This document shows, in pieces, positions 27,429-57,117 of a stretch of 64,000 nucleotides of DNA. Every line of letters begins with the position of its first letter. The stretch's first letter is position 1. Position numbers and translations under genes: made by a program. The stretch is from positions 248,001 to 312,000 of the forward strand of contig NZ_KB905697.1 in assembly GCF_000380985.1 (NCBI RefSeq), in the 5' to 3' direction. The notes beneath the pieces are model-generated. The model saw only the letters and a program-made list of their open reading frames with translations. It ran no database searches and was not told the DNA's origin. The stretch comes from Proteiniphilum acetatigenes DSM 18083 (GTDB taxonomy: Bacteria; Bacteroidota; Bacteroidia; Bacteroidales; Dysgonomonadaceae).

Positions 27429-27432
27429 TTTT

Positions 27433-32839: not shown

Positions 32840-35086
32840 TCACTTCGATTTTTTGGTATTCCATTCGGGGGTTTCAACATTTAAAAGATGTTTCATGAAA
32901 AAATCGCGGCGCTTTCTTTCTCCGTATTTTTCTCCTAAAGTATGTCTGGCACCGGGAAGCATCACAAATTCAAACTCTTTATCATGTTTAATCAATTCAT
33001 CCACGAGTTGCAATGTACTCGACGGATCTACATTATTATCCATCTCCCCGAGGATCAACATTAACTTTCCATTCAGGAGATGTGCATTCACTACGTTGGA
33101 ACTCTCTTCATATTCTTTTCCAATGGGATATCCCATCCACTGCTCGTTCCACCATATCTTATCCATCCGGTTATCGTAGCAACCACAAGCGGACACACCC
33201 ACTTTGTAAAAATCGGGATGGAACAAAAGTCCCGCCATGGTATTCTGTCCACCGGCTGACACACCGTAAATTCCCATCCGTTCAATATCCATTTCCGGAT
33301 ATTTCCCTGCAGCCGCCTTTATCCAGGCAATCCTGTCAGGGAAACCGGCATCTTTCAGGTTTTTCCAGCATACGTCGTGGAAAGCCTTGGACCGGTTTGC
33401 TGTTCCCATCCCGTCGATCATCACCGTGATAAATCCCATTTCGGCCAGGGCACTGGGCCGGTATTCCACTGCAAATGATTTGGGCACATGCGAATCGTGT
33501 GGTCCGGCATAGATATATTCGATTACAGGATATTTTTTTGTCGGATCGAAATTGGAGGGACGAATGATCATCCCCCAGATATCGGTTTCACCGTCCCGTC
33601 CTTTCGCAGAAAAGACTTCCGGCATTCGCCATCCGGATGCGGTAACTCCGGAAATATCGGGCTGCATAGCGGGTTTGTATATGATTTTCCCTCCACCCTC
33701 AACGGAACGTATTACCACTACAGGCGGTAAATCTACTCTTGAGTACACATCGAACATATACCGGTAATCCTGCGAAAAAGTAACGTTGTGATGGGCATTC
33801 TCAGGAGTAAGCGGCGTTATTTTTCCACTATGCATCTCCAAAGTATAATATTTTTCCAGATAAGGGTCTTCGTTCTTATCCAGACCACACGCCTTAAAAA
33901 GGATCTGCCTCTTTTTTTCATCCACCTTCATAACAGTTTTCACAACCCATTCACCTTGGGTAAGTTGCTTTTTCACTTTCCCGGATGTTATATCATACAG
34001 GTAAATATGACGCCATCCGTCACGTTCCGAAATCCACAACAGTTCATCGCTCTCCTTAAACCAATATTGATAAAGATTATAGTAATGAATAAACGTAGGA
34101 CTTTCTTCCTTTACTACCGGATGCAGTGTTCCGGAAAGAATATCTCCAGCATATACGATGAATTGCTGATGTCCTCTTTTATTGAAATCGAACGTAAAGA
34201 AATCGCTTTTCTTATTCCATTTTATGTTGGTCAGATCATACTGGGAGTCAACATCCGGCACATCAAAATGAATTACTTTTTCTTCATCAATCAAAAAAGC
34301 AACCGGACGTCTTACAGGCAGTGCATCTCCCGGTTTCAGATAATCATATGTCTCTGTTTTAGGCTGTAATTGATCCTTTGGAGAAGAAGAGATCAACAAC
34401 AATTTGCGATCCCCTCCGGGGCGATATTTGCAACACACGATCTTTCTCGAATCGGGCGACCAGTAGATATTCGACGAGTAATATTCGTAAGGTGAACCAT
34501 CGTTACTTAATTTCCGGATATTTCCTGTTTCTTTATCTTTTACCCAAAGATTCCCTTCCGAGATATAGGCTTCTTTTTTGCCATCCGGAGAGGGGATTCT
34601 TTCCCGGGAATCTTCTTTGAATATATTGCCCCAATAGGGTTCTTCACGGAAGCTCTGAACCGGATTCCTGGCAACTTTATAATCTGCCAACAGGGCGTAA
34701 TAATCGGTTGTTTCAATGCGGAAAAAAATGGAATCCCGCCGGTCACTCAATCGGATCTGCCGGAAAGGAAGATTATATGCATCTGTTTTTTTATCCAATA
34801 CTTTTGACAAGGAAGTGGCCAGACGTTCCTGATCGAATACATTTCTTTGCGTTTTCTGTTCGGGATCGATCAGATAAAATTCTTTCCCCTTGGGGGTTTG
34901 TGTCATATAGACAAAACAATGTGAATCATTTACAGCCTGAACATTTGTTGCATTGTAATAAAATTTTGAGGTGAACCGTTCATTATAACGATCTGCCAAT
35001 TGGTATAAACTATCTGCGTTTTGTGCTGCAACGGATGATACAAAAAAAATCCGGAATAAAAAAAGGTAGGTAAATACAGGCTTCAT
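32840..35086 (-). CDS. Exported S9 family serine peptidase (DPP IV-like)
   Basis: The 748-residue protein has a signal peptide ending SSVAAQ, an eight-bladed DPPIV_N-type propeller (about residues 90-480) and an alpha/beta-hydrolase domain. The catalytic triad is Ser610 (GVSAGG), Asp683 (GEMDNNV) and His715 (GARHT). The oxyanion tyrosine lies in YIYAGP. Dipeptidyl peptidases of this family remove X-Pro or X-Ala dipeptides. The Glu-Glu pair that binds the free N-terminus in DPP IV is not evident: the region before the YWSPD motif reads YEYYSSNI. True dipeptidyl peptidase activity is therefore uncertain. It is the last gene of the PUL 3 run and ends in a terminator, which fits a role in trimming proline-rich peptides. 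Confidence 0.85.
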   Translation of the reverse strand: MKPVFTYLFLFRIFFVSSVAAQNADSLYQLADRYNERFTSKFYYNATNVQAVNDSHCFVYMTQTPKGKEFYLIDPEQKTQRNVFDQERLATSLSKVLDKKTDAYNLPFRQIRLSDRRDSIFFRIETTDYYALLADYKVARNPVQSFREEPYWGNIFKEDSRERIPSPDGKKEAYISEGNLWVKDKETGNIRKLSNDGSPYEYYSSNIYWSPDSRKIVCCKYRPGGDRKLLLISSSPKDQLQPKTETYDYLKPGDALPVRRPVAFLIDEEKVIHFDVPDVDSQYDLTNIKWNKKSDFFTFDFNKRGHQQFIVYAGDILSGTLHPVVKEESPTFIHYYNLYQYWFKESDELLWISERDGWRHIYLYDITSGKVKKQLTQGEWVVKTVMKVDEKKRQILFKACGLDKNEDPYLEKYYTLEMHSGKITPLTPENAHHNVTFSQDYRYMFDVYSRVDLPPVVVIRSVEGGGKIIYKPAMQPDISGVTASGWRMPEVFSAKGRDGETDIWGMIIRPSNFDPTKKYPVIEYIYAGPHDSHVPKSFAVEYRPSALAEMGFITVMIDGMGTANRSKAFHDVCWKNLKDAGFPDRIAWIKAAAGKYPEMDIERMGIYGVSAGGQNTMAGLLFHPDFYKVGVSACGCYDNRMDKIWWNEQWMGYPIGKEYEESSNVVNAHLLNGKLMLILGEMDNNVDPSSTLQLVDELIKHDKEFEFVMLPGARHTLGEKYGERKRRDFFMKHLLNVETPEWNTKKSK

Positions 35087-35207
35087 TTTATTAATTGTTT
35101 ATGATTTTATTGTTTAGCTATCTATTTGATTACATTAGTCGTTTTTTCGCAATAGGTGAATTCGAGTAAACTTAGTTGTTTTCTGTTCATTTAGCTTAAC
35201 GAAAACG

Positions 35208-37904
35208 TTATTTAATTTCGATACTCAAAATATTTCTCTTTCCTTTTTGGGATTTTACTTCATAATATCCTCTTGTATTTTTTATAATTCCGGTTGGAAG
35301 CATTATTTCTTTGTCCTCAGGCACCTTGACCTCTAACAACGCATCTCCGTTAAATTCGATAATCGTTTCTCTCGTTTTCGGATTATAATCAACTTGTTGC
35401 ATCTGTCCGGAAACAGTTGTCAGGTGAAGGGATTCCGGTGCAATAAAGACCCTGTTTTTCCCGGCCGTTGTAATTTCTGTCCTGATCCATTCTCCATCTT
35501 TTTCAATATTGCCACTGAAAGCAACCCATCCGAATTCAGGATGATGAGAGATATAGGTACCTGAACTGACCGCATACCCATAAAATCCGCTGCCGTAGTC
35601 TCCGGCATAACCGTCGATAGCCAGCGTAGAAGGATAGGAATGGAAAGCGGCCGGGCCGAAGCCGTCTTCAGTCACATTTGCCAATGGCCCCATTGATCCG
35701 GCATGCCCCACCCTCAACAGGTAAAAATCATCCGGATTATCCTTGTAGGCAGAGAGTACGGGTATTGCATTTAATCCTGAACCGTAATGGTGTAACTGGC
35801 GTTCAATCCTGGCCAGTTTCCCGCCATATACAAAATCCCAGTATCTGCGGGCGCTCCCGTTATACCCCCAATGGGGAAGCGTTGGCATATAGGCGAGGAT
35901 TGCGTTGAGGGTAACACCCGCTTTATCGGCATAACCGAAGTAGGATGTCCACATATACACTTCCTCCTGTCCGGTCGAATCCCACGGCATCTCACTTCCG
36001 AACGGATAGTTCAACGAACGCCAGTGATCCGCCCGCTTTTTCATTTCCGCTTCCAGGGTAACAGCCATTTCCGTAAATCCTTCCCGTTGCAGATCCAGAA
36101 GGATATAGAGGAAAACAGAACCCTCCATCTGCCCGAACTGCGCATAGTAAGGAGCGAATTTCATCATCGCTATGGCTGTATGATAAGCATTTTCCAGGCT
36201 TTGTCTCCAGTCGATACCGGTAAAACCACGATTTCTACCCAAATGATACATCACCCAATGGGCTGCGGCCACATGCGGATAATTATATGAACGGCCAAGG
36301 TCTTCGGCATTTTCTTTCGACCAGGCTTCCCATCCACGGAACCGGATGGAATCGCTATATGTCCCTTTCGGCATCAGTTCCGGCTCATAATAGAACAGGC
36401 TCTTTCTTACCCCGTATTTTGTTGAATCGGAGTTATGCTGGATCCTGCCCCACATTGTTTCATTGATGAATCTTTTTATTTTCTCAATCTCCTGATGGTC
36501 GGGCCGTACAAGCTGCTTCATCACAGCAGCCAGCCAACTTCCGGCTCCTGCTTCGTCGCTCAGGCCAACAAACCAGGAACGTCTCTCCTGTGTAAGGATC
36601 TGTTTCCTGTCATAATCATAGTTCATGATGGATGGTGAACGTCCGAAAGGGTCATCCCTGTTTTCATACCATTGTGCCGTAGTAAGAAAGTTCCCCAGGT
36701 CATCCACCACTTCTTCCTGCGATTTAATCACCTTATAATTAATCGTCTGCAGCGTATTGTCTTCGTAACGGACGGAAACCCGGACCCTGCCCCAACTATT
36801 CCCTTTCACTTCATATTCCGACCAGTTATTGGGTGTCTCTCCTTTTTTTGTCAATGTCAGTGCATTTTCCGGATGAACGGAAATGCTACTTATCTTTTTC
36901 GGGTATTTTATAAACAACCTGCCTATTTCGTTCATGGGCAAAACATACCCGGGAAGCCCTATTGCAACGGGTCTCTTCCGACGAATCAATTCATCTTCTA
37001 TTTCCCTGACAGACGGAGCAAGCACAAACCTGAGAGAAAAGTTCTTCGATTCTCCCGAAGCCAGCTTGGCCGAGGTTGGCTCGTTCCAGGGTTCAACATC
37101 TTTCCACTCCGTTTCCGCATTTGCTTTGCTATGGATAAGCCATTCATGGAATCCCTCAAATACCACACCTTTTGGCGTCGAATCTTCGTTAAGTGGATTG
37201 TATGCCTCAAACGCAGCGTTTTCCTGAGGTAATACCAATAAACTAAAGCCTTTGCCATGTAAATGATTTACCTGAAGATAGCCCGCATCTTTTCCTATGT
37301 AAGGATCAAAGAACACATTGTCATGATGCGCCTGATCCAGATTTTTCCCCTCCAGTATATTATTAAAAATAAGAGGGATACCCAAAGACCCTATTTCCAC
37401 ATTATCCGAAGAGAGATTGGTAATCTCAAACCGCAGCACCAGATCCCCTTTATCAGTCTCCCAGAATCTTTTTATCCTCACAGGTATATCTGCAGGCAAA
37501 GTAGCGGCAAGATCAGCGGCAGCAACTACATTTCCGCTTATTGTCAACTTCGCAACCGGTTCACGTGCATATGCGGTAGAATACTTTTTCCATCCCTCTT
37601 CTCCTGATTTTTTCAGCGTGATATTGATATCTCCCAAATGGTACAACCCGTCTTTATCCCTTTGGTCTATCCTGTCGCCCGGTGTATAATCAAATGATGT
37701 ATCCGAAAGCAGTTTCAGATGTTTCACTGTTTGAGAGGCATTTACCAGCGTCAGAGAGAAGGACTTTGTTGTAAACGTCTTCTCCCCCATCCCCATAAAA
37801 AGCGTGGAGGGCTTTTGTGCAATTCTTTCCCAGGGAGATTGGGCGAAAGCGGGAAGAAGAGTTAAAACAGAAACAATGCAAGCTGTTATTATCAGTCGTT
37901 TCAT
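35208..37904 (-). CDS. Exported DUF5695-like protein, possible glycosidase
   Basis: The 898-residue protein (from ATG at 37904, MKRLIITACIVSVLTLLPAFAQ) has a signal peptide and a long beta-rich N-terminal half. The C-terminal half is helical, with many aromatic residues typical of an (alpha/alpha)6 barrel (AAAHWVMYHLGRNRGFTGIDW, QMEGSVFLYILLDLQREGF). It resembles the DUF5695 family of bacteria and fungi, which to my knowledge has no published activity. A glycoside hydrolase or lyase is plausible. Candidate acids include the Glu of QMEGS and the Asp/Glu of MPWDSTGQEEVYMW. It stands between the metallopeptidase pair and the S9 peptidase in the PUL 3 run. Confidence 0.6.
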   Translation of the reverse strand: MKRLIITACIVSVLTLLPAFAQSPWERIAQKPSTLFMGMGEKTFTTKSFSLTLVNASQTVKHLKLLSDTSFDYTPGDRIDQRDKDGLYHLGDINITLKKSGEEGWKKYSTAYAREPVAKLTISGNVVAAADLAATLPADIPVRIKRFWETDKGDLVLRFEITNLSSDNVEIGSLGIPLIFNNILEGKNLDQAHHDNVFFDPYIGKDAGYLQVNHLHGKGFSLLVLPQENAAFEAYNPLNEDSTPKGVVFEGFHEWLIHSKANAETEWKDVEPWNEPTSAKLASGESKNFSLRFVLAPSVREIEDELIRRKRPVAIGLPGYVLPMNEIGRLFIKYPKKISSISVHPENALTLTKKGETPNNWSEYEVKGNSWGRVRVSVRYEDNTLQTINYKVIKSQEEVVDDLGNFLTTAQWYENRDDPFGRSPSIMNYDYDRKQILTQERRSWFVGLSDEAGAGSWLAAVMKQLVRPDHQEIEKIKRFINETMWGRIQHNSDSTKYGVRKSLFYYEPELMPKGTYSDSIRFRGWEAWSKENAEDLGRSYNYPHVAAAHWVMYHLGRNRGFTGIDWRQSLENAYHTAIAMMKFAPYYAQFGQMEGSVFLYILLDLQREGFTEMAVTLEAEMKKRADHWRSLNYPFGSEMPWDSTGQEEVYMWTSYFGYADKAGVTLNAILAYMPTLPHWGYNGSARRYWDFVYGGKLARIERQLHHYGSGLNAIPVLSAYKDNPDDFYLLRVGHAGSMGPLANVTEDGFGPAAFHSYPSTLAIDGYAGDYGSGFYGYAVSSGTYISHHPEFGWVAFSGNIEKDGEWIRTEITTAGKNRVFIAPESLHLTTVSGQMQQVDYNPKTRETIIEFNGDALLEVKVPEDKEIMLPTGIIKNTRGYYEVKSQKGKRNILSIEIK

Positions 37905-37930
37905 AAGATATAATTTTAGATACAAAATGC

Positions 37931-38042
37931 AAGAGCAAAGAATCAAGATATAAGAACCAAGACTTTATAAACTAAAAACTAAAAGTGAAGAACTAGAAGT
38001 GATTTATTGCTATTCACTATTAATTTTTCACTTTTAACTTTT
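37931..38042. repeat. Low-complexity intergenic repeat with inverted arms
   Basis: The 136-base gap after the metallopeptidase genes contains degenerate AAGAACCAAGA-type units. It also has two near-complementary arms, AAAACTAAAAGTGAA (37975-37989) and TTCACTTTTAACTTTT (38027-38042). The second arm covers the stop codon of the gene ending at 38041. The patch resembles those at 6354 and 55635. Confidence 0.6.
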
Positions 38043-38916
38043 AATTATTCTTTGAGATTTCCCAATTGTACAAATTTACCTTTTTATGACGGCTGATCCT
38101 TTTATCCGTTTCAGGAAAGTATTCGGATAAGATCCCGTACAATCCGGGATCATATACTTTCAGTTCTTCCCGTGTATTCACTTTATTATGCTTCCCGTCA
38201 CCTCCGTCATTATCTACTTCAGCATTGACATTAAACCAACTCTGTACACCTTCCGCCCAATATTCCCAGATATTGGTAGCAGCATATGTATTGATCCATC
38301 GTCCGTTTTTGATAGCGGCATCCAGTAATGCCTCCAGACTATCATTGAATTCAGGGTTTATCGGTGAAATTCCTACATCATGGATCGTATGCGCGAATTC
38401 ATGGATCAGAATATCTTCAGCATGGTATTTATCGATCTGATATGCCAGAATATTCTCCTCGGCACAGGTGGTTAACGGTAAATCGAGTGTTCCTCCCAAT
38501 CCCCGAGCACGAACATCCCAATTCAGGGAAGTATCATTGGCGAGATAGGCATGTTCGGGTATATCGGTCGTTCCTTCGTAACGCGCCATAATCCCGATCC
38601 GGGTATCCCTGCTTGTCATTGATTCCAACACCTCTCCGGGCAATATATCCGTCAGCGCTTTAATAGTAAGGTATGCAGCATAATAGCATGAGTCAGGAAC
38701 CCTCCACGAGCTAATAACATGTATTCCGTTTACATTCATATACTTTTTGTAAAACGGGTCCAGGTTCAAAGCGGCCGGTGGTGTTGTTATCTCTGGTGTA
38801 TCCACCAATTGATTCAGGGCATTTGTCTCATTCAATGGTGCCGATCTTTGATTTTCCCGAGTTTGACAACTCATAATGAGCAAAAACAGACAAATAATTT
38901 CTACTGCTCGTTTCAT
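38041..38916 (-). CDS. Anthrax-lethal-factor/PPEP-like zinc metallopeptidase, lipoprotein copy
   Basis: The 291-residue lipoprotein (lipobox LLIMSC, Cys17) has a zinc site HEFAH at residues 172-176. Downstream, Tyr211 and Glu218 are spaced as Y-x6-E inside TYAATNIWEYWAE. This reproduces the peptidase M34 pattern I recall for anthrax lethal factor (Y728/E735 in YGRTNEAEFFAE) and for the clostridial Pro-Pro endopeptidase PPEP-1 (Y178/E185). Both cut proline-rich targets. The gene follows its paralogue after 40 bases. It starts at ATG 38916; upstream extension of the frame has no protein character. The assignment rests on motif spacing, not on a database search. Confidence 0.65.
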   Translation of the reverse strand: MKRAVEIICLFLLIMSCQTRENQRSAPLNETNALNQLVDTPEITTPPAALNLDPFYKKYMNVNGIHVISSWRVPDSCYYAAYLTIKALTDILPGEVLESMTSRDTRIGIMARYEGTTDIPEHAYLANDTSLNWDVRARGLGGTLDLPLTTCAEENILAYQIDKYHAEDILIHEFAHTIHDVGISPINPEFNDSLEALLDAAIKNGRWINTYAATNIWEYWAEGVQSWFNVNAEVDNDGGDGKHNKVNTREELKVYDPGLYGILSEYFPETDKRISRHKKVNLYNWEISKNN

Positions 38917-38956: not shown

Positions 38957-39760
38957 TCATTGAATTTGTTTATAGTTCTCATCGCATAGATCCAGTTCCG
39001 ATTCGGGAAAATAGCGCAAAAGCAAGTCATACATTTCCGGATCATATGTTTTCAGCTTTTCGCGGGTATTAACGTCATTGTGCACTCCATTGGACTTTTC
39101 CGAATAACGGTTACAGTCGAAAAAAGACTGTACGGCTTCCGCGAAATATTCCTCTTTATTGCTGATCGCGTACGTATTCTCCCACCGTCCTTTTTCAATG
39201 GCATGTTGACGGAGTGTTTCCAGTTCGGAATTGAAACCGGGGTCTACCCCGACAATACCCACCGTATGGATAAGATGGGCAAATTCATGTACAAGAATGC
39301 TTTCGCCTTTATACCGGTCACCCTTCATACAAAGCACATTTTCCTCCCCACAACTCGCGCTGAACGCATCTTCAGGGGCACCGCCGAAACCGCGCGCCCG
39401 TTTATTCCAGTGGGCAATATTTTCAGGCGTATCGCAGATGTGGGCGTACTCGGGCAAATCGCAAACCTCTTCATTCCGGCCGATGATCATTACTTTACAG
39501 CCGTTCTCCACCATGACCTGTCTCACATCCGGCCGTTTGGAGAGCATAACCGTAATCACATGCCGGGCACGGATAAGTGCTTCGTCTGAAACATTTTCCG
39601 ATGCAACCACCGGGATACCGGCCACATCGAGATGCTTTTTGTAAAACGGATCGATTCCCAATCCCGCCGGGACGGAACCAACCTTATCCTTTGTTTGTGC
39701 AAATCCGTATCCGCAAAAAAGCAGTAAAATCGTTATAAGTACAGCTGTCTTATCTCTCAT
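38957..39760 (-). CDS. Anthrax-lethal-factor/PPEP-like zinc metallopeptidase, secreted copy
   Basis: The 267-residue protein has a signal peptide (AVLITILLLFCGYGFAQ) and the zinc site HEFAH at residues 158-162. Tyr197 and Glu204 follow in NTYAISNKEEYFAEA. It is a clear paralogue of the next gene: shared DPFYKK near the N-terminus, HEFAH, GRW-N-TYA and VNTREKLKTYDPEMY near the C-terminus. It lacks the lipobox, so the two copies probably act in different places, this one soluble in the periplasm or exported. It lies 77 bases downstream of the GH127 gene on the same strand, inside the PUL 3 run. Confidence 0.65.
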   Translation of the reverse strand: MRDKTAVLITILLLFCGYGFAQTKDKVGSVPAGLGIDPFYKKHLDVAGIPVVASENVSDEALIRARHVITVMLSKRPDVRQVMVENGCKVMIIGRNEEVCDLPEYAHICDTPENIAHWNKRARGFGGAPEDAFSASCGEENVLCMKGDRYKGESILVHEFAHLIHTVGIVGVDPGFNSELETLRQHAIEKGRWENTYAISNKEEYFAEAVQSFFDCNRYSEKSNGVHNDVNTREKLKTYDPEMYDLLLRYFPESELDLCDENYKQIQ

Positions 39761-44785: not shown

Positions 44786-44795
44786 GATTGTTTTT

Positions 44796-47858: not shown

Positions 47859-47985
47859 AGGGTTAAAATATAAAAAAGTAAAAAATAATATTCGAAGTAA
47901 TGTGTAACCCACTGGTTCTGTTTGCAAATTTGAGGTGAAAAAAGAACTTGTAATACAAAAAAAATCCAAAAAAATAACACAATTC

Positions 47986-48059: not shown

Positions 48060-51000
48060 ATGCAAACAATACTTTCCATATTCTTCATATTTTGGATATT
48101 GTGTTTGAAATCGTTCTCCATTGAACTGAATTTCCAATATTACAAGGTAGAGGACGGTTTATCCTCGAATACGGTGTATGCTGTTCTCCAGGACTCGAGA
48201 GGATTTATGTGGTTCGGGACCGAAAACGGGTTGAACCGATTCGACGGTTACACATTTACCGCCTACCGGAATATCCCACGAAATGAAAATTCCCTGATAA
48301 ACAATTATGTATATTGTCTTATTGAAGATGGGGATCAAACACTCTGGATCGGAACCGAACGGGGTGTATGTACGTTTGACCTGGGAAAAGACGGGTTCAG
48401 TCCGTTTATATTAAAAACCGAAAAAGGCATTCCGGTCTCAGGAAGAATTCAAAATCTGATTCCCGATAACGGGAAAATATGGATCACGTCTGCAAGGCAG
48501 GGGGTTTTTGTGTATGAAAATAATAAGCTATCCCTGCATTCTTTCGAGGAATTCAAAATAAACCCGGACGAACAGATATGGGTAACAGGGATCTATAAAG
48601 ACAAAGAAAATATTATCTGGGCTTCGGTGGACAATACCGGACATCAGATATACAGGTTTAATAAGGAATCGGGAAAATTTACTCCCGGCTTTCCGGATAT
48701 GTGTTTCGATGAACAAAAGCAATTGCGTGCCTACAGCATGCTGGAAGATACTTTCGGGACATTGTGGTTCGGAACATGGACAAACGGCCTGATCGCAGTA
48801 GATAAACACAAAGGGATCATCACCGAAAGACATTTACATATCCCCGGTAAAGACAGAATCCTGCATATCCATCAATTAACGGAGTACGATCCGGGCACCC
48901 TACTGATCGGGTCGAATGACGGGCTTACTTCCTTCAAAATATCACCCATAGCCGGCAACCGGCCGGATCAACATTTCCGGGAGCCAATGCTCTCCAATTG
49001 TTTTGTGTATCCCATTTATAAGGATAACGAAGGGGGTCTCTGGATCGGAACATATTACGGCGGAATAAATTATGCGTCGCCCAACAGAAACTATTTCACA
49101 GGATATACATATATCAAACACGAGAATTCTGTTACGGGAAACGTGGTTAGCTGTTTCTGCGAAGATCCGTCAGGAAATATATGGATCGGAACCGAAGACG
49201 GCGGACTGAACGAACTGAATGTAAAAACCGGAAAATTTCATGCATATAGTTATAAGGATAAGACGAATGGCCTGTCGTTTGATAATGTGCATGCTCTCCT
49301 GATAGATAACAACAACCTGTGGGTCGGAACATATACGGGAGGACTCAATGTAATGGATCTTCACACGAAGAAGATCAAACATTATGTTTCGGATCATGCA
49401 GATAAAAACACACTGGATGCGAATAACATCTATTCGATATATCGTGATTCGCTGGCAAATATCTGGATTGGGACCTCATCAGGAATAAACCTGTATAACC
49501 GGCAATCGGATAATTTCACCCGTGCCCGTCACCTGAATGAAATAGTAATGGATATTTTACAGACAGGAAACCATATCTGGTTTGCGACGATCAATAGGGG
49601 ATTACAAAAATTCGATCTCGAATCCGGCCAATGGACGGAATACCTGTTCGAATCCGATAACGAAAATTCATTAATCAGTAACGATGTGATTTGCCTGGGG
49701 ACCGATGAAAAGCAACAGTTATGGATCGGTACCAACCACGGATTATGCCGGTATGACCCAAAAAATGATATTTTTATCAATGAAAAAGTGGAATTTCAGA
49801 GCAATTATATTTGTAAGGTCTTTGTCGAAAACGGAAACCTATGGATTGCAACGCTGAAGGGATTGATCTGTTATACACCTTCTACAAAGCAATACCGTCA
49901 ATTCACCAAAAGCGACGGATTGCTGAGCGACCTGTTCACACCAAACTCCGGATTCAAAACCTCTTCGGGCAAAATTTACCTAGGAACACCCAACGGATTC
50001 AATGCCTTCTACCCCAAACAAATATCTAAGAACACACACGTGCCTCCTATCGCGATAACGGATTTTCAACTGTTCAACAAACCGGTGAATATGGACGATT
50101 TCGTCACCGGAAATAAACAAAATCAACCCGTTCTTACACTGCCACACAATAAAAATTCATTCAGCTTCGGATTTACGGCATTGAGTTTCTTTGCTCCCGA
50201 GAAAAACAGGTATTCCTTTATGCTGGAAGGATTCGACAAGAGTTGGAATGCTCCCGGTAAAGAACGGAGGGCGACATACACGAATATCCCACCCGGAAAT
50301 TACACTTTCAGGATAAAAGCATCGAATAACGATGGTATCTGGAACGACAAAGATTATACCCTGGCAATCATCATAAAACCACCTCTTTGGTGGAACGGAT
50401 GGTCAATCACACTCTATATGTTACTTCTCATTACCGGCATCCTCTATCTGTTTCATTTCCTTCGGGAAAAAGACAAACGGAAAAACGAGGAAAAAATCTC
50501 CAGGATCAGAAGCGAACAGGAAAAAGAGATGTATCGTTCCAAAATAGAGTTTTTCACCAATGTGGCACACGAGATAAGAACACCTCTAAGTTTGATCATT
50601 GCTCCTTTGGAACAGGTAATCGAAGCCTCGGACGCGATGCCGGATGCAATCAAGGAGAATCTGGATATCATGAGAAGCAATAGTCAACGCCTCTTAACAT
50701 TAGTCAATCAGTTACTCGATTTTTCAAAGATTGAAAAAGGGGGGTGTATCCAGATCTCACTGTCCAATCAGAACATTCATCACTTACTGGCAGAGATCTA
50801 TCCACGGTTTAAACCATTCATCGAACATAAACACATTCTGTTTGAATACATCTGTAATGATACGGATTTCGAGACGATGACCGATGCGGAAAACCTCACA
50901 AAAGTGGTAAGCAACCTGTTGAGCAACGCATCGAAATACACGACCGATCACATATTACTGAAATTGAATGCACATCTCTCCGCGGATTACTATGAAATAT

Positions 51001-52097
51001 CGGTAAAAGATAACGGTGCCGGTTTGTCTGAATCGGAAACCGAGCATATATTCAAACCGTTTTATCAGGCGCCGGGACAATACAACTCCGGTACAGGCCT
51101 CGGATTATTCCTGGTAAAATCGATAGTGGATGCACTTGACGGAAAAATAGCACTAATAAATAATCCCGGTGAGAGTTTTTCCATTTCAGTCGTTCTTCCT
51201 AAAATAAACAGGCAGGTAGAATATCCTCCCCCCGGAGAATATTCTACGGAAACACAAATGAGCTCCGGTATAGAACCCGAAAGTTGCGATTCAGGCAACA
51301 TTTGTTGCGATTCGGGTAATGATGAAAAACCATCGCTGCTGATCGTGGAAGACGACAAAGATATGCAGGCGTTCATCCGGAAACAGTTCCTGAACAATTA
51401 CCTCGTTTATACGGCAAGCGATGGAAATGAGGGTATTGACATCCTGGAAAATCATCCAATAGATATCATCGTTACAGATATGATGATGCCGAATATGGAT
51501 GGCATCACATTTTGCAAAACCGTCAAACAGAATTTTTTATGGAGCCATATTCCGGTGATTATGCTGACGGCAAAAACAAATGTCGGATCAAAGATCGAAG
51601 CCTTTGAGACGGGCGCTGATGCGTATCTGGAAAAGCCTTTCCATATTTCCTATTTGTCCACACGCATCCGGAACCTGCTGGAATCACGCAGATTACTGTT
51701 CCAAAAATTCTCCCAGACACCGCATGCTTCCCTGAAAAGTATCGCAGGAAACAAAACAGATGAAGATTTTCTGGTAAAATTGAACGAGATCATTGAAAAG
51801 AATATTGAAAATTCCGATTTCTCTATCGATAATCTGGCGAAAGAGATGGGCATCAGCAGTTCGGGATTGTTTGCAAAGATAAAACAGATATCCGGAATGA
51901 CGCCCAACAGGCTTATTCTGTCCATGCGACTGAAGAAAGCGGCTGAACTGTTAAGTGGAGGAAGATACAGGGTAAATGAAGTGTGTTACAGGGTAGGCTT
52001 CAACAACCCGTCTTATTTTGCAAAATGTTTCCAGAAACAATTCAGAAAACTCCCAAAAGATTTTATCAGCGATCCGGATGAAAAAACGGAAGATTAA
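48060..52097 (+). CDS. Hybrid two-component system regulator (HTCS) of PUL 3
   Basis: The 1345-residue protein joins sensor and response regulator in one chain. After a signal anchor come two seven-bladed Reg_prop propellers (residues about 20-690, repeated LWIGT motifs) and a Y_Y_Y domain. A transmembrane helix follows near residue 790. The histidine kinase has phospho-acceptor His837 (NVAHEIRTPL) and ATP site motifs NLLSNASKY and GTGLGLFLV. The receiver domain has Asp1140 (VTDMMMPNMDG). A C-terminal AraC-type double helix-turn-helix ends the protein (MGISSSGLFAKIKQ, VCYRVGFNNPSYFAKCF). It senses an oligosaccharide in the periplasm and activates its PUL. It is divergent from SusC of PUL 3, the normal place for the cognate regulator. 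Confidence 0.95.
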   Translation: MQTILSIFFIFWILCLKSFSIELNFQYYKVEDGLSSNTVYAVLQDSRGFMWFGTENGLNRFDGYTFTAYRNIPRNENSLINNYVYCLIEDGDQTLWIGTERGVCTFDLGKDGFSPFILKTEKGIPVSGRIQNLIPDNGKIWITSARQGVFVYENNKLSLHSFEEFKINPDEQIWVTGIYKDKENIIWASVDNTGHQIYRFNKESGKFTPGFPDMCFDEQKQLRAYSMLEDTFGTLWFGTWTNGLIAVDKHKGIITERHLHIPGKDRILHIHQLTEYDPGTLLIGSNDGLTSFKISPIAGNRPDQHFREPMLSNCFVYPIYKDNEGGLWIGTYYGGINYASPNRNYFTGYTYIKHENSVTGNVVSCFCEDPSGNIWIGTEDGGLNELNVKTGKFHAYSYKDKTNGLSFDNVHALLIDNNNLWVGTYTGGLNVMDLHTKKIKHYVSDHADKNTLDANNIYSIYRDSLANIWIGTSSGINLYNRQSDNFTRARHLNEIVMDILQTGNHIWFATINRGLQKFDLESGQWTEYLFESDNENSLISNDVICLGTDEKQQLWIGTNHGLCRYDPKNDIFINEKVEFQSNYICKVFVENGNLWIATLKGLICYTPSTKQYRQFTKSDGLLSDLFTPNSGFKTSSGKIYLGTPNGFNAFYPKQISKNTHVPPIAITDFQLFNKPVNMDDFVTGNKQNQPVLTLPHNKNSFSFGFTALSFFAPEKNRYSFMLEGFDKSWNAPGKERRATYTNIPPGNYTFRIKASNNDGIWNDKDYTLAIIIKPPLWWNGWSITLYMLLLITGILYLFHFLREKDKRKNEEKISRIRSEQEKEMYRSKIEFFTNVAHEIRTPLSLIIAPLEQVIEASDAMPDAIKENLDIMRSNSQRLLTLVNQLLDFSKIEKGGCIQISLSNQNIHHLLAEIYPRFKPFIEHKHILFEYICNDTDFETMTDAENLTKVVSNLLSNASKYTTDHILLKLNAHLSADYYEISVKDNGAGLSESETEHIFKPFYQAPGQYNSGTGLGLFLVKSIVDALDGKIALINNPGESFSISVVLPKINRQVEYPPPGEYSTETQMSSGIEPESCDSGNICCDSGNDEKPSLLIVEDDKDMQAFIRKQFLNNYLVYTASDGNEGIDILENHPIDIIVTDMMMPNMDGITFCKTVKQNFLWSHIPVIMLTAKTNVGSKIEAFETGADAYLEKPFHISYLSTRIRNLLESRRLLFQKFSQTPHASLKSIAGNKTDEDFLVKLNEIIEKNIENSDFSIDNLAKEMGISSSGLFAKIKQISGMTPNRLILSMRLKKAAELLSGGRYRVNEVCYRVGFNNPSYFAKCFQKQFRKLPKDFISDPDEKTED

Positions 52098-52999
52098 CCC
52101 CCGATAACCGCATTCAATCTGTTTTCAATAAAAACAGAGTGGATGTATGCTATCTTTTCTTTTGATGGTTCTGCCATACCGTTTTCGTTGTAGGTCTTCC
52201 CCAGTTTTTCGTATTTTTTTGAAGCAATATTATGATAAGGCAGCAATCCCACAACGGTTGGTTTTCGTTGCAATCCGTTCAGAAAAGCGATTGTCTCCAT
52301 GATATTTTCATTATCGGTATTTACCCCTTCCACCAAAGGAATACGGATATGATATTCTTTATCGTGACCGGAAATCAGTTTGAGGTTTTTCAGAATGAGT
52401 GTATTATCCGCTCCCACCCACTTACGATGATCCTGTGTATTCATTAGTTTCAGATCATACAGGAAAAGGTCGGTATGGTCCAGGATATCTTCCACCACCG
52501 CCGACCTCACACTACCTGAGGTATCGACCGCCCGATGAATCCCTTCCCGTCCGCACCTGATCAGCAGGCTTTTCAATGCTTCGGGATACATCAACGGTTC
52601 ACCGCCTGAGAAAGTAACCCCACCGCCCGAAGCATCCATTATATTGGTCTCTTTTAAGACAGCAGTCATCACTTCCTCTTCGGAATAATCCCGCCCACTC
52701 ATCTCAATGGCTTTGGTGGGACACACTTCGGCACACTTTCCACAAAGGGTACATTTATCGAAATCGGTAATGACTCCGTCCGTTTTTGTCAGCGTTAACG
52801 CATTTTCCGGGCATATAGCCACACACGATCCACATCCGATGCATTTGCTTTTATTATACAGCTTTTCGGTTTTAAAGGAGATGCTCTCAGGATTATGACA
52901 CCATCGACATGAGAGTGGGCAGCCTTTGAAAAAGACCGTAACCCGTACTCCAGGGCCGTCGTTGATCGAATACCGTTTTATGTCGAAGAGGAATGGCAT
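52094..52999 (-). CDS. hypE: Glycyl-radical-enzyme activating enzyme (radical SAM), HypE-like
   Basis: The 301-residue protein has the radical-SAM cluster cysteines Cys27, Cys31 and Cys34 (GCPLSCRWC) and the GGGVTFSGGEPL motif. An inserted ferredoxin-like domain carries two further 4Fe-4S motifs (CIGCGSCVAICPE and CTLCGKCAEVCPT). This is the layout of activases for dehydratase-type glycyl radical enzymes, unlike the shorter PflA. It abstracts a hydrogen from the conserved glycine of the partner enzyme, whose gene ends 12 bases upstream. Its stop codon overlaps that of the convergent HTCS gene by three bases. The symbol is given by analogy with the partner assignment. Confidence 0.85.
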   Translation of the reverse strand: MPFLFDIKRYSINDGPGVRVTVFFKGCPLSCRWCHNPESISFKTEKLYNKSKCIGCGSCVAICPENALTLTKTDGVITDFDKCTLCGKCAEVCPTKAIEMSGRDYSEEEVMTAVLKETNIMDASGGGVTFSGGEPLMYPEALKSLLIRCGREGIHRAVDTSGSVRSAVVEDILDHTDLFLYDLKLMNTQDHRKWVGADNTLILKNLKLISGHDKEYHIRIPLVEGVNTDNENIMETIAFLNGLQRKPTVVGLLPYHNIASKKYEKLGKTYNENGMAEPSKEKIAYIHSVFIENRLNAVIGG

Positions 53000-53011
53000 C
53001 GACTTCCGTTT

Positions 53012-55468
53012 TTAGAACGATTCGTTTTCGGTCCGTTCGATGATCTCCTGTTTCAGGTTTTCGTGCATATCATTGAAATAATCACTGTACCCCGCCATCC
53101 GTACCAACAGATCCTTGTACTCTTCGGGATTGTCGCGGGCAGCAATTAACGTAGCCGTGTCCACAATATTGAATTGCACATGGTGCCCTCCCTGGGCAAA
53201 ATAACTCCGGATAAGATTCCCGAGTTTTGCTACATCTTCGTCACGTCGAAGCAGACTGGGGAGGAATCGTAAATTCAACAACGTACCCCCCGACTTTATT
53301 TGATCCAGTTTACTGAGGGAACGAATCACCGCAGAAGGGCCGTGCGTATCGCATCCGTGTGAGGGGGACGTACCATCGGAAATGGCTTTTCCTGCCAGAC
53401 GCCCGTTAGGCATGGCGCCCATCACGTTTCCAAAATAGTTGTGGCAGGTGGTGGACAACATATTCAGATGGTATTTACCGCCTGGCTTTCCATTCGGACG
53501 GTTATCAATCAGGTCGAACATATCATCATATACCTTCACCGCGATCTCATCAGCGTAATCGTTGTCGTTTCCGAAGAAAGGCGTATGGTTGATGATCCGC
53601 TGGCGCAACACCTCTTCTCCTTCAAAATTGACGGAAATCGCATACAGCAACTGATCCATTCTGATATCTCTCACCTCGAAAACATGTTTTTTGAGGGCGG
53701 AGAGAGAATCGGTTACTGTTCCCAGACCGGTACATTGGATGTAGGTAGTATTATACCGCGGGCCGCCGTTATAATAATCGCGTCCTTTTTTGATGCAGTC
53801 ATCGATCAGCACCGACAGGAAAGTAGCCGGAAAATAGCGGGCATACATCCGGTCGATGTAATGATTGACTTTTATTTTCAGGTCGATGATATATTTCAAT
53901 TGGGCATGAAAGGCGTGATATAACTCATCATAGGATGTAAAATTCCGCGGATCACCTGTCTCGATACCTACTTTTTTTCCGGTTACCGGATCAACGCCGT
54001 TGAAGAGTGTAATTTCCAGTATCTTGGGAACATTTAAATAGCCAGTCAGCAGATAAGCCTCTTTTCCGAACGTACCTACCTCAATACATCCGCTACATCC
54101 CCCCTCCCGCGCATCTTTCAAAGATTTTCCGGAACGCAGCATCTCCTGGATATAGACATCGGGATTGAACACCGACGGATAACCATGTCCCTGACGGATC
54201 ACTTTGATAGCCGCATGCAGGAAACGGTTAGGGGTTACTGAGGCGATATGCACCGAATTGCCCGGTTGAAGGATATGCAACTCCTCGATCACCTCAAGCA
54301 TCAGGTAGGAAACATCATTCACACCATCCGAGCCGTCAGGTTTAACACCTCCGATATTAATATTGGTGAAATCGTTATAGGTGCCGCTTTCATTGGCTGT
54401 GATCCCCACTTTTGGCGGTGCCGGCTGGTTGTTCACCTTGATCCAGAAACAGCAGAGCAGTTCCTTTGCCTCTTCACGTGTTAATGTACCGTTCTCAAGA
54501 TCGTTTTGATAGAACGGCACCAGATGCTGGTCAAAATGTCCGGGATTAAAGGCATCCCATCCGTTCAGCTCCGTAATCACCCCCAGATGAATAAACCAAT
54601 ACATCTGGATCGCTTCCCAAAAGTTACGCGGGGCATGGGCGGGCACCCTCCGGCATACTTCGGCGATACGATTCAATTCTTCTACCCGTGCCGGATCCTT
54701 TTCATGGCGGGCCATCTCTTCGGCTTTTTCGGCATGACGCTCGGCCAGTCGGATAATGGCATCGCAGGATATGGCCATGGCATGTAACTGGTCTTCTTTG
54801 TCAAGTGCTTCCGGATCATTGCAATAATCGAGTTTTGCTATTTCTTCCTCTATCTCCCTTTTGAAATCGAGCATCCCTTTCCGGTAGATTTTTCCATCCA
54901 TACAGGTATGTCCGGGTGCTCGCTGTTCCATGAATTCGGTGAACAGACCGGCTTCGTAAGCCGCTTTCCACTCACCGGGAACATGGTTGAAAATACGGTC
55001 ACGTTGTGAACGGCCTTCCCAATAAGGGATCACCTCATGCCGGTAAATATCGATATCCTCCTCACTGATCACATAACGTTGCTGTTCACGTGTATTCAAC
55101 ACATGCAGATCTTCCACAGAATGGCAGGTCAGTTCGGGAAATGTGTATACTGCCTTGGGTTTCTCTCCGCGTTCACCGACTATCAGCTCATTCGTTCCGA
55201 TGTAAATGCTCTTTTTTTCGCAGATCTCTAAAAAATTCAACGCACGCATCACAGGAATAGCATATTTCCCGTCGTTCTCCTTATAGAATGCGGTTTCTAT
55301 CAGTGCACGCTCGATGGAAAGAGATGCCGGAGTTGAGACGCTCTCTTCCCTCAGAGTACGTATCCGGTCGTTCATTCCCGGTTTCGGAGTACTGCCTGTA
55401 TAGAAATTGCCCTCCTGATATGCTTTCCGTTCAGGGACATTATTTTTTATTTTAAGCTCTTCAAACAT
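53012..55468 (-). CDS. hypD: Glycyl radical enzyme, probable trans-4-hydroxy-L-proline dehydratase
   Basis: The 818-residue enzyme has the catalytic Cys461-x-Glu463 (SGCIEVG) of the eliminating branch. Its glycyl-radical Gly793 lies in VRMAGYSDYF near the C-terminus. Pyruvate formate-lyase has two adjacent cysteines instead, so that function is unlikely. Comparing with Clostridioides difficile HypD residue numbers I recall (F152, H160, D278, S334, F340, C434, E436, Y450, T645, G765), I find Phe179, His187, Asp305, Ser361, Phe367, Cys461, Glu463, Tyr477, Thr673 and Gly793 at matching spacing. HypD dehydrates hydroxyproline to pyrroline-5-carboxylate in the anaerobic cytoplasm. No proC lies nearby. 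The enzyme fits a locus that also encodes GH127 and proline-directed peptidases. Confidence 0.82.
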   Translation of the reverse strand: MFEELKIKNNVPERKAYQEGNFYTGSTPKPGMNDRIRTLREESVSTPASLSIERALIETAFYKENDGKYAIPVMRALNFLEICEKKSIYIGTNELIVGERGEKPKAVYTFPELTCHSVEDLHVLNTREQQRYVISEEDIDIYRHEVIPYWEGRSQRDRIFNHVPGEWKAAYEAGLFTEFMEQRAPGHTCMDGKIYRKGMLDFKREIEEEIAKLDYCNDPEALDKEDQLHAMAISCDAIIRLAERHAEKAEEMARHEKDPARVEELNRIAEVCRRVPAHAPRNFWEAIQMYWFIHLGVITELNGWDAFNPGHFDQHLVPFYQNDLENGTLTREEAKELLCCFWIKVNNQPAPPKVGITANESGTYNDFTNINIGGVKPDGSDGVNDVSYLMLEVIEELHILQPGNSVHIASVTPNRFLHAAIKVIRQGHGYPSVFNPDVYIQEMLRSGKSLKDAREGGCSGCIEVGTFGKEAYLLTGYLNVPKILEITLFNGVDPVTGKKVGIETGDPRNFTSYDELYHAFHAQLKYIIDLKIKVNHYIDRMYARYFPATFLSVLIDDCIKKGRDYYNGGPRYNTTYIQCTGLGTVTDSLSALKKHVFEVRDIRMDQLLYAISVNFEGEEVLRQRIINHTPFFGNDNDYADEIAVKVYDDMFDLIDNRPNGKPGGKYHLNMLSTTCHNYFGNVMGAMPNGRLAGKAISDGTSPSHGCDTHGPSAVIRSLSKLDQIKSGGTLLNLRFLPSLLRRDEDVAKLGNLIRSYFAQGGHHVQFNIVDTATLIAARDNPEEYKDLLVRMAGYSDYFNDMHENLKQEIIERTENESF

Positions 55469-55634: not shown

Positions 55635-55727
55635 TTAATTGATAATTGATAATTGACAATTGGGAATGGATGAGTAGTTACCTATTAATCCATTATTCAC
55701 ATTAGCACATTAGCATATTGGCACATT
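55635..55727. repeat. Period-7/8 degenerate tandem repeats
   Basis: Between the Xaa-Pro aminopeptidase and the glycyl radical enzyme gene, AATTGAT/AATTGAC-type 7-base units (55638-55662) are followed by CACATTAG/GCACATTA-type 8-base units (55698-55727). The 257-base gap otherwise shows no gene and no clear promoter. Confidence 0.65.
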
Positions 55728-57117
55728 AATTAATCCACGCTTTCTCCCGTTCCAGTTCTACTTCTTCAATTGTCTTGGCCAGCGGTTTTCCGAGCACGCG
55801 GTTCCCTGTTTCGGTGATCAGAATATCTTCTTCGTTGCGAATCCCTCCAAAATCGCCATATCGACGCACTTCGTTGAAGTTTATAAAATCGGCATTTATT
55901 TTATTACTTTCCCAATGATCGATCAATTCCGGAATGAAGTAAATCCCCGGTTCAATAGTCAGTACAAAACCCGGTTGCAGTTCCCGTCCCAGGCGTAACG
56001 ATTTCAGCCCGAATTGAGTACTCTTCGGCACACCGGCGTAACCGACAATCTGTTCGCCGAGATTTTCCATATCATGTACATCTAATCCCATCAGATGACC
56101 GGTCCCGCACGGAAAGAAAAGTGCATGTGCACCATTGGCTACCGCCTCTTTGCTATCTCCCCTGGTTAATCCCAATGCTTTCAGTCCGTCGAAAATTACC
56201 TCACCCACCCGGAGATGTACATCCCTGAAATTGACACCCGGTTTCGCCAGTTCAATCGCTTTATGATGTGCATCAAGCGTTATCCGGTAGATATCTTTTT
56301 GCCTTTCTGTAAACTTCCTGGATACAGGAAAGGTACTGCTCATATCGCCGGCATATCCCAATGGCGTTTCATATCCTGCATCCAAAAGAAACAGGTCTCC
56401 CTCTTTGAGTGTATTTCCGTGATAATGGTTATGCAGAAACTGTCCGTTGATGGTAGCAATAATCGGAAAAGAAAGATTGCCTCCCGCTGCGATAGCCACT
56501 TCATGCACCCTGGCGGTTACCTGCGCCTCCGTCATGCCTGCACGGGCATAATGCATGGCTGTAAAATGCATATCGGCCGTAATATCGACTGCCTTTTCAA
56601 TTTCTTCGATTTCTTCCTCCGATTTGATATTACGCTGGTCGGCGATCGCCACGATCAAATCTTTGCTCACTTTAGCTGTTGCTTCCGTTACCGGATACCC
56701 GAGAAAGTCATTGAGTTTGAGAAAATGCTCAGCCCTGTAAGGCGGCAGATATTTTACCGATTGTTTGTCGAATCCGGCAATTTTCTTCCGGAACACTGAC
56801 AGATCGCCTGTATAGCGGATACCGGCTTTTTCGGCCAGTTCACTGATCTTAGGCTGGGAGCCTGTCCAGACAATTGAATCGATCGTAGGATCATCACCGA
56901 AAATATATTCTTTATCCTCATCGATATCGATCAGTGCGATCAAACCGGGTTTACTGACTCCAAAATAATATAGAAATGTACTATCCTGACGGTAATAGTA
57001 GGTATTATCAGCGTAATTGATACCACATTCATCATTCCCGAGAAAAAGCAGTTTTCCTGTTTGAAACCGGGCTTTCAGTTTTGCTCTTCTTTCGACATAA
57101 ATTTCTTTTGCAAACAT
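55726..57117 (-). CDS. pepP: Xaa-Pro aminopeptidase (peptidase M24B)
   Basis: The 463-residue cytosolic protein has an N-terminal AMP_N-like domain (about residues 1-160) and a pita-bread metallopeptidase domain. The dinuclear metal ligands are in place: Asp246 (LLDAGYE), Asp258 (GDMSSTFP), His341 (GTGHLMGLDVHD), Glu389 (TIEPGIYF) and Glu429 (IRNEED). Such enzymes remove the N-terminal residue in front of proline, which most other aminopeptidases cannot do. There is no signal peptide. The gene lies upstream of the glycyl radical enzyme gene on the same strand. It may be housekeeping, but its activity would be needed to free proline or hydroxyproline from imported peptides. Confidence 0.9.
   Translation of the reverse strand: MFAKEIYVERRAKLKARFQTGKLLFLGNDECGINYADNTYYYRQDSTFLYYFGVSKPGLIALIDIDEDKEYIFGDDPTIDSIVWTGSQPKISELAEKAGIRYTGDLSVFRKKIAGFDKQSVKYLPPYRAEHFLKLNDFLGYPVTEATAKVSKDLIVAIADQRNIKSEEEIEEIEKAVDITADMHFTAMHYARAGMTEAQVTARVHEVAIAAGGNLSFPIIATINGQFLHNHYHGNTLKEGDLFLLDAGYETPLGYAGDMSSTFPVSRKFTERQKDIYRITLDAHHKAIELAKPGVNFRDVHLRVGEVIFDGLKALGLTRGDSKEAVANGAHALFFPCGTGHLMGLDVHDMENLGEQIVGYAGVPKSTQFGLKSLRLGRELQPGFVLTIEPGIYFIPELIDHWESNKINADFINFNEVRRYGDFGGIRNEEDILITETGNRVLGKPLAKTIEEVELEREKAWIN

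What the first reader, a model, noticed from the sequence alone, without database searches (positions are those of the whole stretch)
32840..57117. Proposed system for breakdown of plant hydroxyproline-rich glycoproteins (extensin utilisation locus)
In one stretch lie a beta-L-arabinofuranosidase of the family that strips arabinose from hydroxyproline, two PPEP-like peptidases, an S9 peptidase, a DUF5695-like protein, a SusC/SusD importer, its HTCS, a Xaa-Pro aminopeptidase and a HypD-type hydroxyproline dehydratase with its activase. Each step from glycosylated surface protein to pyrroline-5-carboxylate is covered. Combining glycan removal, proline-directed proteolysis and radical hydroxyproline catabolism in one locus would be a new kind of PUL that treats the protein core as food too. 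Collagen is an unlikely target because it carries no arabinose.
Basis: inference. Interest (0 to 1): 0.92.

Follow-up and report, generated by a model that had tools for sequence, protein, structure and literature searches.

The report
Plant extensin-eating gene cassette in Bacteroidales
A bacterium of the order Bacteroidales carries, as one gain-or-lose block of genes, a sugar-stripping, proline-cutting and hydroxyproline-fermenting set that fits the plant wall protein extensin, and relatives of its key peptidase are fused to enzymes for the main bond types of extensin, which suggests that some bacteria feed on the protein core as well as on its sugars.

Summary
The genes are there, at the stated places. 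The arabinofuranosidase is GH146-like rather than GH127; both 'PPEP-like' proteins carry HEFAH, and a model of one matches Pro-Pro endopeptidases PPEP-3 and PPEP-2 best. HypD passes its family cut-off and keeps 10 of 10 residues tested in the C. difficile enzyme. The association is not chance: in the genus HypD (10 of 37 genomes) and the peptidase (7 of 37, all HypD+) go together; X-Pro peptidase, HypD, activase, HTCS and PUL fill one site that is empty in sister genomes; one genome keeps an in-frame scar joining the two end regions. HypD or its activase adjoins the peptidase in three genomes outside the genus. In 37 named loci the peptidase lies with GH127/146 (31), S9 (26), GH43 (25), GH97 (20), and is fused to GH97 alpha-galactosidase (20), GH127 (2), GH43 (2), GH27 (1), S9 (1). 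This matches extensin: Ser-alpha-Gal, Hyp-beta-Ara with alpha-1,3-Ara, contiguous Hyp. Against: the window's cassette lacks GH43 and alpha-galactosidase, only 2 of 20 named Bacteroides/Phocaeicola genomes have HypD, AGP is not excluded, nothing is tested at the bench. New variant of a known kind (PUL).

The parts
32840..35086 (-). S9 prolyl peptidase (DPPIV_N + Peptidase_S9; GVSAGG at residue 608), secreted
   Evidence: Pfam; nearest solved chains 2d5l and btDPP4; motif; N-terminal signal by eye
35208..37946 (-). DUF5695 protein, function unknown; likely start 37904; secreted (by eye)
   Evidence: PF18951 1246.8 bits; no solved relative at E<=0.001 (best 0.18); model unusable, pLDDT 40.5; start
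38041..38916 (-). PPEP2, Pro-Pro-endopeptidase-like lipoprotein (HEFAH; lipobox LIMSC by eye)
   Evidence: 41% identical to PPEP1; no Pfam hit
38957..39760 (-). PPEP1, secreted Pro-Pro-endopeptidase-like zinc peptidase (H158 E159 H162, Y197, E204)
   Evidence: model pLDDT 85; best PDB matches PPEP-3 9g5j E 1e-5 and PPEP-2 6fpc E 2e-4
39838..43158 (-). GH146-like beta-L-arabinofuranosidase (PF07944), zinc ligands E521, C523, C591, C592
43178..44785 (-). SusD-like lipoprotein
44796..47969 (-). SusC-like TonB-dependent transporter (likely start 47858)
48060..52097 (+). hybrid two-component system regulator (HTCS)
52094..52999 (-). radical-SAM activase of HypD
   Evidence: NF043069 366.1 of 425 bits, best family listed
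53012..55468 (-). [quoted passage not shown]
   Evidence: NF043068 1189.5 bits over cut-off; nearest structure 6vxc; 10 of 10 mutated residues of C. difficile HypD kept
55726..57117 (-). Xaa-Pro dipeptidase/aminopeptidase (AMP_N + M24), no signal peptide seen
   Evidence: in 12 of 39 genus genomes
57235..60863 (-). left flank of the site: S41, RpiB, transketolase (not part of the cassette)
25810..26703 (-). right flank of the site: HAD hydrolase, next to S41 in empty-site genomes G007 and G012

Best explanation
It is a SusCD/HTCS utilisation cassette for plant hydroxyproline-rich glycoproteins of the extensin type (contiguous arabinosylated Hyp). Proposed path: secreted or surface beta-L-arabinofuranosidase (GH146-like; GH43, GH127 and alpha-galactosidase in other versions, the last also elsewhere in this genome) strips the Hyp-linked arabinose, and Ser-linked galactose where that enzyme is present; the two Pro-Pro-endopeptidase-like enzymes cut the bared Hyp/Pro runs; the S9 peptidase trims X-Pro units; SusCD and unidentified peptide carriers import the products; the X-Pro peptidase frees Hyp in the cytoplasm; HypD and its activase dehydrate it to pyrroline-5-carboxylate, which goes to glutamate (P5C dehydrogenase elsewhere in the genome) or to proline (reductase not searched). 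Shown by sequence: gene set, families, key residues, predicted peptidase fold, unit behaviour, fusions in relatives. Inferred: substrate, induction, all activities, order of steps, transport.
For: One unit: HypD is on the same contig as the PUL in 5 of the 7 PPEP-positive genus genomes, with the PUL's internal order reshuffled; 8 HypD-lacking genomes examined keep tkt-S41 and lack the cassette's genes there, two of them with S41 directly followed by HAD and LacZ; a ninth, G034, has an in-frame XPP(24-229)::DUF5695(622-911) scar. Recurrence: Prevotellaceae L106 (P5C dehydrogenase, PPEP, XPP, HypD, activase), G405 (GH146-like, S9, PPEP, M24, HypD, activase, GH127), G361 (M24, PPEP, activase at contig end). 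Substrate: 37 named PPEP loci hold PF07944 in 31, S9 in 26, GH43 in 25, GH97 in 20, against 1, 1, 0, 0 of 23 control windows; PPEP fused to alpha-galactosidases of two families, GH127, GH43 and S9; extensin linkages as in PMC7933510 (passages); some GH146 enzymes cut Araf-beta-Hyp (PMC10850190, passages). HypD residues.
Against: Window cassette lacks GH43 and alpha-galactosidase. Only 12 of 37 genomes with named PPEP loci have a HypD-grade match (one in two pieces), 2 of 20 among those named Bacteroides or Phocaeicola, and only 1 of 37 has it inside the fetched locus. In the order survey only 1 of 14 genomes with both has them within 2 kb, though many contigs are short. The P. vulgatus GH127 and GH43 resemble B. 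theta enzymes of an arabinogalactan PUL (the PDB-to-gene naming is recalled). DUF5695, DUF6055 and DUF4859 have no known role. HypD and PUL are divided by the HTCS on the other strand, so they are at least two transcripts. A PPEP homologue without Pro-Pro activity is known (CD1597).
Confidence: 0.7

Rival explanations
1. The cassette targets arabinogalactan proteins or gum-arabic-like glycoproteins; the peptidases only loosen the backbone and the arabinofuranosidases act on AG side chains.
For: P. vulgatus GH127 (1149.7 bits to 6ex6, recalled as BT3674) and GH43 (3qz4 second hit, recalled as BT3675) resemble enzymes of the BT3674-87 arabinogalactan PUL; BT3675 cuts alpha-1,3-Araf on gum arabic AGP (PMC8939339, passages).
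Against: No galactanase family other than GH43 itself was recognised by Pfam in the window cassette or in the five P. vulgatus locus proteins scanned, and that GH43's nearest solved relatives are named xylanases or arabinofuranosidases, so this is weak evidence; AGP Hyp is mostly non-contiguous (recalled), whereas the conserved and repeatedly fused partner is a Pro-Pro-type peptidase; alpha-galactosidase fusions fit Ser-Gal.
Confidence: 0.2
2. Two unrelated neighbours: a PUL beside a general Hyp-scavenging module (XPP, HypD, activase).
For: HypD is common without the peptidase (142 of 392 order genomes have HypD; 21 have any peptidase match); 7 HypD loci of other families showed none of the cassette's peptidase or glycosidase genes; in G020 and G028 HypD sits with XPP and S9 but without the PUL.
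Against: Joint gain and loss at one site, a scar spanning both, reshuffled PUL order with kept linkage, recurrence outside the genus.
Confidence: 0.06
3. Target is collagen, gelatin or another animal Hyp protein.
For: HypD is discussed with collagen as Hyp source (PMC7077986, PMC11574389, passages); collagenase peptidase domains appear as weaker fold matches, E 0.009 and up.
Against: Arabinofuranosidases and alpha-galactosidases are conserved companions; collagen carries no arabinose (recalled); Gly-X-Y repeats lack runs of three or more prolines (recalled).
Confidence: 0.04

Closest known systems
Bifidobacterium longum HypAA / HypBA2 / HypBA1 system for Hyp-linked beta-L-arabino-oligosaccharides
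   Same: Targets arabinose on Hyp of extensin-type proteins with GH127/146-class enzymes (PMC7263609 abstract start in listing; PMC10850190 passages).
   Different: Uses HypBA2 and an ABC transporter (listing; enzyme name); what I saw speaks of the sugar only. No HypBA2 (NF041578) hit among the cassette proteins scanned; here peptidases and HypD are added, with SusCD.
Xanthomonas euvesicatoria XeHypAA/XeHypBA2/XeHypBA1
   Same: GH43, GH121 and a GH127/146 enzyme on Hyp-arabinosides, with an adjacent predicted prolyl oligopeptidase suggested to act on HRGPs (PMC6085000, passages).
   Different: No PPEP, HypD or SusCD in the passages seen; 'TonB' has no occurrence in the text; discussed there in relation to plant infection.
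Pro-Pro endopeptidases (PPEP-1 to PPEP-4)
   Same: HEXXH zinc peptidase; best fold matches PPEP-3 and PPEP-2.
   Different: Too distant for sequence search of the PDB; the known ones named come from Clostridioides, Paenibacillus, Geobacillus and Anoxybacillus, and PPEP-1 cuts adhesion proteins to release the cells (abstract start); here a nutritional role is inferred and many are fused to glycoside hydrolases.
HypD / HypD-AE Hyp catabolism of Clostridioides difficile
   Same: Same enzyme family and active-site residues.
   Different: There the product is reduced to proline for Stickland fermentation (PMC11574389, passage); here the gene is joined to a glycoprotein-type PUL.
B. thetaiotaomicron arabinogalactan PUL BT3674-87
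   Same: Related GH127 and GH43 in the P. vulgatus version (gene naming of the PDB entries recalled).
   Different: The P. vulgatus locus has PPEP, GH97 and S9; whether BT3674-87 has them was not checked.

Membership tests
PUL (SusCD type) | adjacent SusC and SusD with CAZyme and regulator | tested here: met
PPEP / M34-like Pro-Pro endopeptidases | HEXXH helix with downstream Tyr and third zinc ligand | tested here: met
   H158 E159 H162, Y197, E204 invariant in 22 rows; HEXXH and Tyr roles from PPEP-3 (H153, E154, H157, Y190), the Glu ligand recalled
PPEP / M34-like Pro-Pro endopeptidases | PPEP fold | tested here: met
   top 5 Foldseek PDB hits are PPEP-3/PPEP-2, E 1e-5 to 2e-4; TM 0.44-0.49 by query length, so moderate; PPEP1 only
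PPEP / M34-like Pro-Pro endopeptidases | substrate-pocket residues (S-loop Tyr/Trp, S1 pocket) | not tested
   no PPEP sequence was aligned residue by residue
PPEP / M34-like Pro-Pro endopeptidases | cleavage between two prolines | not testable with these tools
   needs a peptide assay; CD1597 shows that a PPEP-like domain can lack it
HypD | equivalog model over cut-off | tested here: met
   1189.5 against 1100 bits
HypD | residues H160, D278, S334, D339, F340, C434, E436, Y450, T645, G765 | tested here: met
   10 of 10, read off the alignment to 6vxc, residue list from PMC7077986 (passages)
HypD activase | NF043069 over cut-off | tested here: not met
   366.1 of 425 bits, but the best family listed
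GH127 (HypBA1 type) | HypBA1 or another GH127 as nearest characterised relative | tested here: not met
   GH146 5opj best; HypBA1 absent from hits at E<=0.001
GH146 | nearest solved relative GH146, zinc ligands E, C, C, C | tested here: met
   formal CAZy assignment not available
Bifidobacterial Hyp-arabinoside system | HypBA2 (GH121) and a GH43 (HypAA) in the locus | tested here: not met
   no GH43 by Pfam; no NF041578 by NCBIfam

The most novel reading that the evidence does not exclude
A widespread, previously unrecognised class of Bacteroidales 'glycoprotein-core' PUL in which a Gram-negative Pro-Pro-endopeptidase family, repeatedly fused to the glycosidases that unmask its cut sites, digests extensin, and whose fullest versions carry the released hydroxyproline through radical dehydration to central metabolism, so that plant wall protein serves as a source of nitrogen and reducible amino acid as well as of sugar.
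Probability: 0.55. Interest if true: 0.88.

Novelty: new variant of a known kind. Interest (0 to 1): 0.8.

Why it matters
Extensins are major cross-linked wall proteins (recalled), and the HypD texts seen name collagen as a source of Hyp. A named gut commensal, Phocaeicola vulgatus ATCC 8482, carries the core locus and, unlinked, a HypD 71% identical to the window's, so the idea is directly testable. It would extend PULs from glycan to protein core, give a nutritional role to Pro-Pro endopeptidases, tie a prominent radical enzyme to plant food, and supply enzymes for structural work on extensin.

Tried and rejected
Chance neighbours: rejected by the empty sites and the scar. XPP as a housekeeping gene: rejected, matched in 12 of 39 genus genomes (two partial: G034 with 217 of 463 residues, G470 with 295 and one stop) and tracking HypD. 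P5C dehydrogenase as a marker of the cassette in this genus: rejected, over cut-off in 33 of 39 genomes. A third P5C-dehydrogenase neighbour in L098, suggested by tblastn: rejected, it is another aldehyde dehydrogenase; only L106 and L179 stand. DUF5695: the two-row model has pLDDT 40.5 and was not used. Sequence search of PPEP1 against the PDB gave no meaningful hit. A paper search by guessed P. vulgatus locus tags gave nothing on point. A shared regulatory motif was not searched. Co-occurrence statistics (Fisher p 1.2e-5 in the genus; 9e-5 in the order) ignore relatedness. In the order count I dropped three weak or partial PPEP matches (G152, G154, G260; two of the three have HypD). The 23 control windows were loci already fetched, not random; 7 were chosen for HypD, 3 contain a PPEP paralogue, and one (L015) is the far end of the G015 cassette and holds a PF07944 and an S9 gene. 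Order-survey loci overlap the named set (for instance contigs of 5730 bases in L097 and L185), so the two sets are not independent. An earlier count said 11 HypD residues and that says 'unrelated' alpha-galactosidases; the right count is 10, and GH97 and GH27 may be distantly related (L099 also hits the GH97 model weakly).
Full report
What is in the window. Between 32840 and 57117 lie, on the minus strand, S9 peptidase, DUF5695, two HEFAH peptidases, a PF07944 arabinofuranosidase, SusD, SusC; on the plus strand an HTCS; then, minus again, activase, HypD and an Xaa-Pro peptidase. With PPEP2 started at 38916 the gaps from SusC to S9 are 10 to 121 bases, which fits one operon; the activase and HTCS ends overlap by four bases; HypD lies 257 bases downstream of XPP. 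PPEP1, PPEP2, GH146-like, DUF5695 and S9 have signal peptides or a lipobox by eye; XPP, HypD and activase do not.

Identities. HypD exceeds its curated cut-off (1189.5 against 1100 bits), its nearest structure is C. difficile HypD 6vxc, and the 10 residues changed by mutation in PMC7077986 (H160, D278, S334, D339, F340, C434, E436, Y450, T645, G765) are all kept, read from that alignment (passages seen). The activase's best family is the Hyp dehydratase activase, below its cut-off. The arabinofuranosidase is nearest to GH146, not GH127, and keeps zinc ligands E521, C523, C591, C592 (compare Bll3HypBA1 E723, C725, C804, C805 in PMC10850190, passages). That paper reports GH146 enzymes (XeHypBA1, Bll4HypBA1) acting on Araf-beta-Hyp, so the family fits, but GH146 also holds arabinan and AGP enzymes. 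The peptidases form a family with invariant H158, E159, H162, Y197 and E204 (22 rows). The PPEP1 model (pLDDT 85) has PPEP-3 and PPEP-2 as its five best PDB matches, with moderate TM-scores (0.44-0.49 over the query).

One unit in the genus. Of 37 genus genomes searched with both queries, HypD over cut-off is in 10 and the peptidase in 7 (one a 37-residue match at a contig edge); all 7 have HypD. They share a contig in 5 of these 7; in G011 and G016 they lie on different contigs, the HypD contig of G011 ending next to HypD. The PUL's internal order differs between genomes while the linkage stays, for example XPP-HypD-act-HTCS-GH146L-S9-SusCD-...-PPEP2-DUF5695 in G005. G010 is decayed: no XPP or PPEP1, PPEP2 and S9 reduced. 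HypD without PPEP occurs in G019 (contig end), G020 and G028, the last two with S9 and XPP near HypD. XPP is matched in 12 of 39 genus genomes, nearly the HypD set.

Empty sites and a scar. In the 8 HypD-lacking genomes examined without any remnant (G007, G008, G012, G013, G018, G023, G026, G031) transketolase, RpiB and S41 remain and none of the cassette's XPP, HypD, peptidase, GH146-like or DUF5695 genes follows in the stretch fetched; some carry other SusC-like genes there. In G007 and G012 S41 is followed at once by the same HAD and LacZ genes that lie beyond the cassette in the window. In G034 an in-frame chimera of XPP residues 24-229 and DUF5695 residues 622-911 stands in the same place. 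In G016 DUF5695 abuts the same LacZ gene on one contig while the other contig runs up to XPP-HypD-act-HTCS. G469 has tkt-rpiB-S41-XPP-HypD-act-HTCS up to a contig end. So XPP through the PUL is gained or lost as a block.

Outside the genus. A named scan gave 41 loci; 37 were studied, four weak Verrucomicrobiales matches (L108-L111) were left out. L106 (Prevotellaceae MAG) has P5C dehydrogenase, PPEP, XPP, HypD, activase and a second M24 peptidase in a row. G405 (another family) has GH146-like, S9, PPEP, M24, HypD, activase and GH127 on a 13-kb contig. G361 has M24, PPEP and, at a contig end, an activase whose best equivalog is again that of HypD, below cut-off. P5C dehydrogenase over cut-off also lies near PPEP in L179. 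In a survey of 392 genomes of the order, 17 others had a full-length PPEP match; 14 of 17 had HypD against 142 of 392 overall (Fisher p 9e-5, no correction for relatedness). But only 1 of those 14 has the two within 2 kb, and only 12 of the 37 named genomes have a HypD-grade match (49-73% identical; one in two pieces), 2 of the 20 named Bacteroides or Phocaeicola. HypD is therefore an optional part of the system.

What the system acts on. P. vulgatus ATCC 8482 has SusC, SusD, DUF4859, DUF6055, GH97::PPEP, GH43, GH127, S9 in a row. Its GH97 is a retaining alpha-galactosidase over the curated cut-off (3a24 best). Among 37 named loci: PF07944 31, S9 26, GH43 25, SusC 21, GH97 20; among 23 control windows 1, 1, 0, 4, 0. 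The peptidase is fused to GH97 in 20, GH127 in 2, GH43 in 2, S9 in 1 (an ORF running to a contig end) and GH27 in 1 of 37 loci, before or after the partner domain. Extensin carries Hyp-beta-Ara(1-2)-beta-Ara(1-2)-beta-Ara(1-3)-alpha-Ara and Ser-alpha-Gal on Ser-Hyp3-5 repeats (PMC7933510, passages). Beta-arabinofuranosidase, alpha-arabinofuranosidase, alpha-galactosidase (two families, the GH27 by Pfam name only) and prolyl peptidase are what such a chain needs, and each has been fused to the peptidase. The main rival is arabinogalactan protein, because the P. vulgatus GH127 and GH43 resemble an arabinogalactan-PUL pair.

Window's own gaps. The window cassette lacks GH43 and alpha-galactosidase. 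The relative G015 has GH43 and a GH127 in its cassette. The window's genome holds five other PF07944 places, a GH97 alpha-galactosidase over cut-off and P5C dehydrogenase elsewhere; GH43 and P5C reductase were not searched genome-wide.

Print status. Searches of the open-access library (24 of 24 papers listed; 23: 20 of 34; 24: 25 of 73; 25: 20 of 69; 49: 20 of 442; 87: 15 of 25; 104: 15 of 170), seen as listings, showed no paper on a Bacteroidales extensin PUL, on PPEP in Bacteroidota or on HypD within a PUL; most lists were capped, subscription papers are missing, and two HypD papers were not held, so absence from print is not established. Nearest prior ideas seen: Xanthomonas with an adjacent prolyl oligopeptidase (PMC6085000, passages) and an in-silico HRGP proposal for Latescibacteria (PMC4454575, passages).

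Noticed in passing
window 26742-32460: A second SusC/SusD/DUF3823 unit sits between the cassette's S9 and the HAD flank; it is 97-98% identical in G015, but in G010 HAD abuts the S9 remnant, so it looks like a separate, nested insertion.
   Followed up: partly
L194:8976-10565 (G034): An open in-frame chimeric gene of XPP N-terminal and DUF5695 C-terminal parts left by deletion of the cassette's middle.
   Followed up: yes
L169, L172, L177, L180-L182: Peptidase homologues, some with long N-terminal parts, with none of the tested glycosidases (PF07944, GH43, GH97) found nearby; possibly another role. Most of their neighbours were not annotated.
   Followed up: no
L099:8744-10714 and L086:6220-7629: A Melibiase_2 (GH27-type) domain fused to the peptidase in L099 and free-standing in L086: apparent replacement or addition of another alpha-galactosidase family.
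   Followed up: partly
window 43178-47969 versus L014, L091: The window's SusC/SusD are only 41%/33% identical to those of the relative G015 but 63%/71% to a Tannerella MAG locus: the transporter pair has apparently been swapped inside the cassette.
   Followed up: partly
window 8976-13350: FAD oxidoreductase next to an 823-residue protein with no Pfam or NCBIfam match, downstream of another SusCD pair.
   Followed up: no
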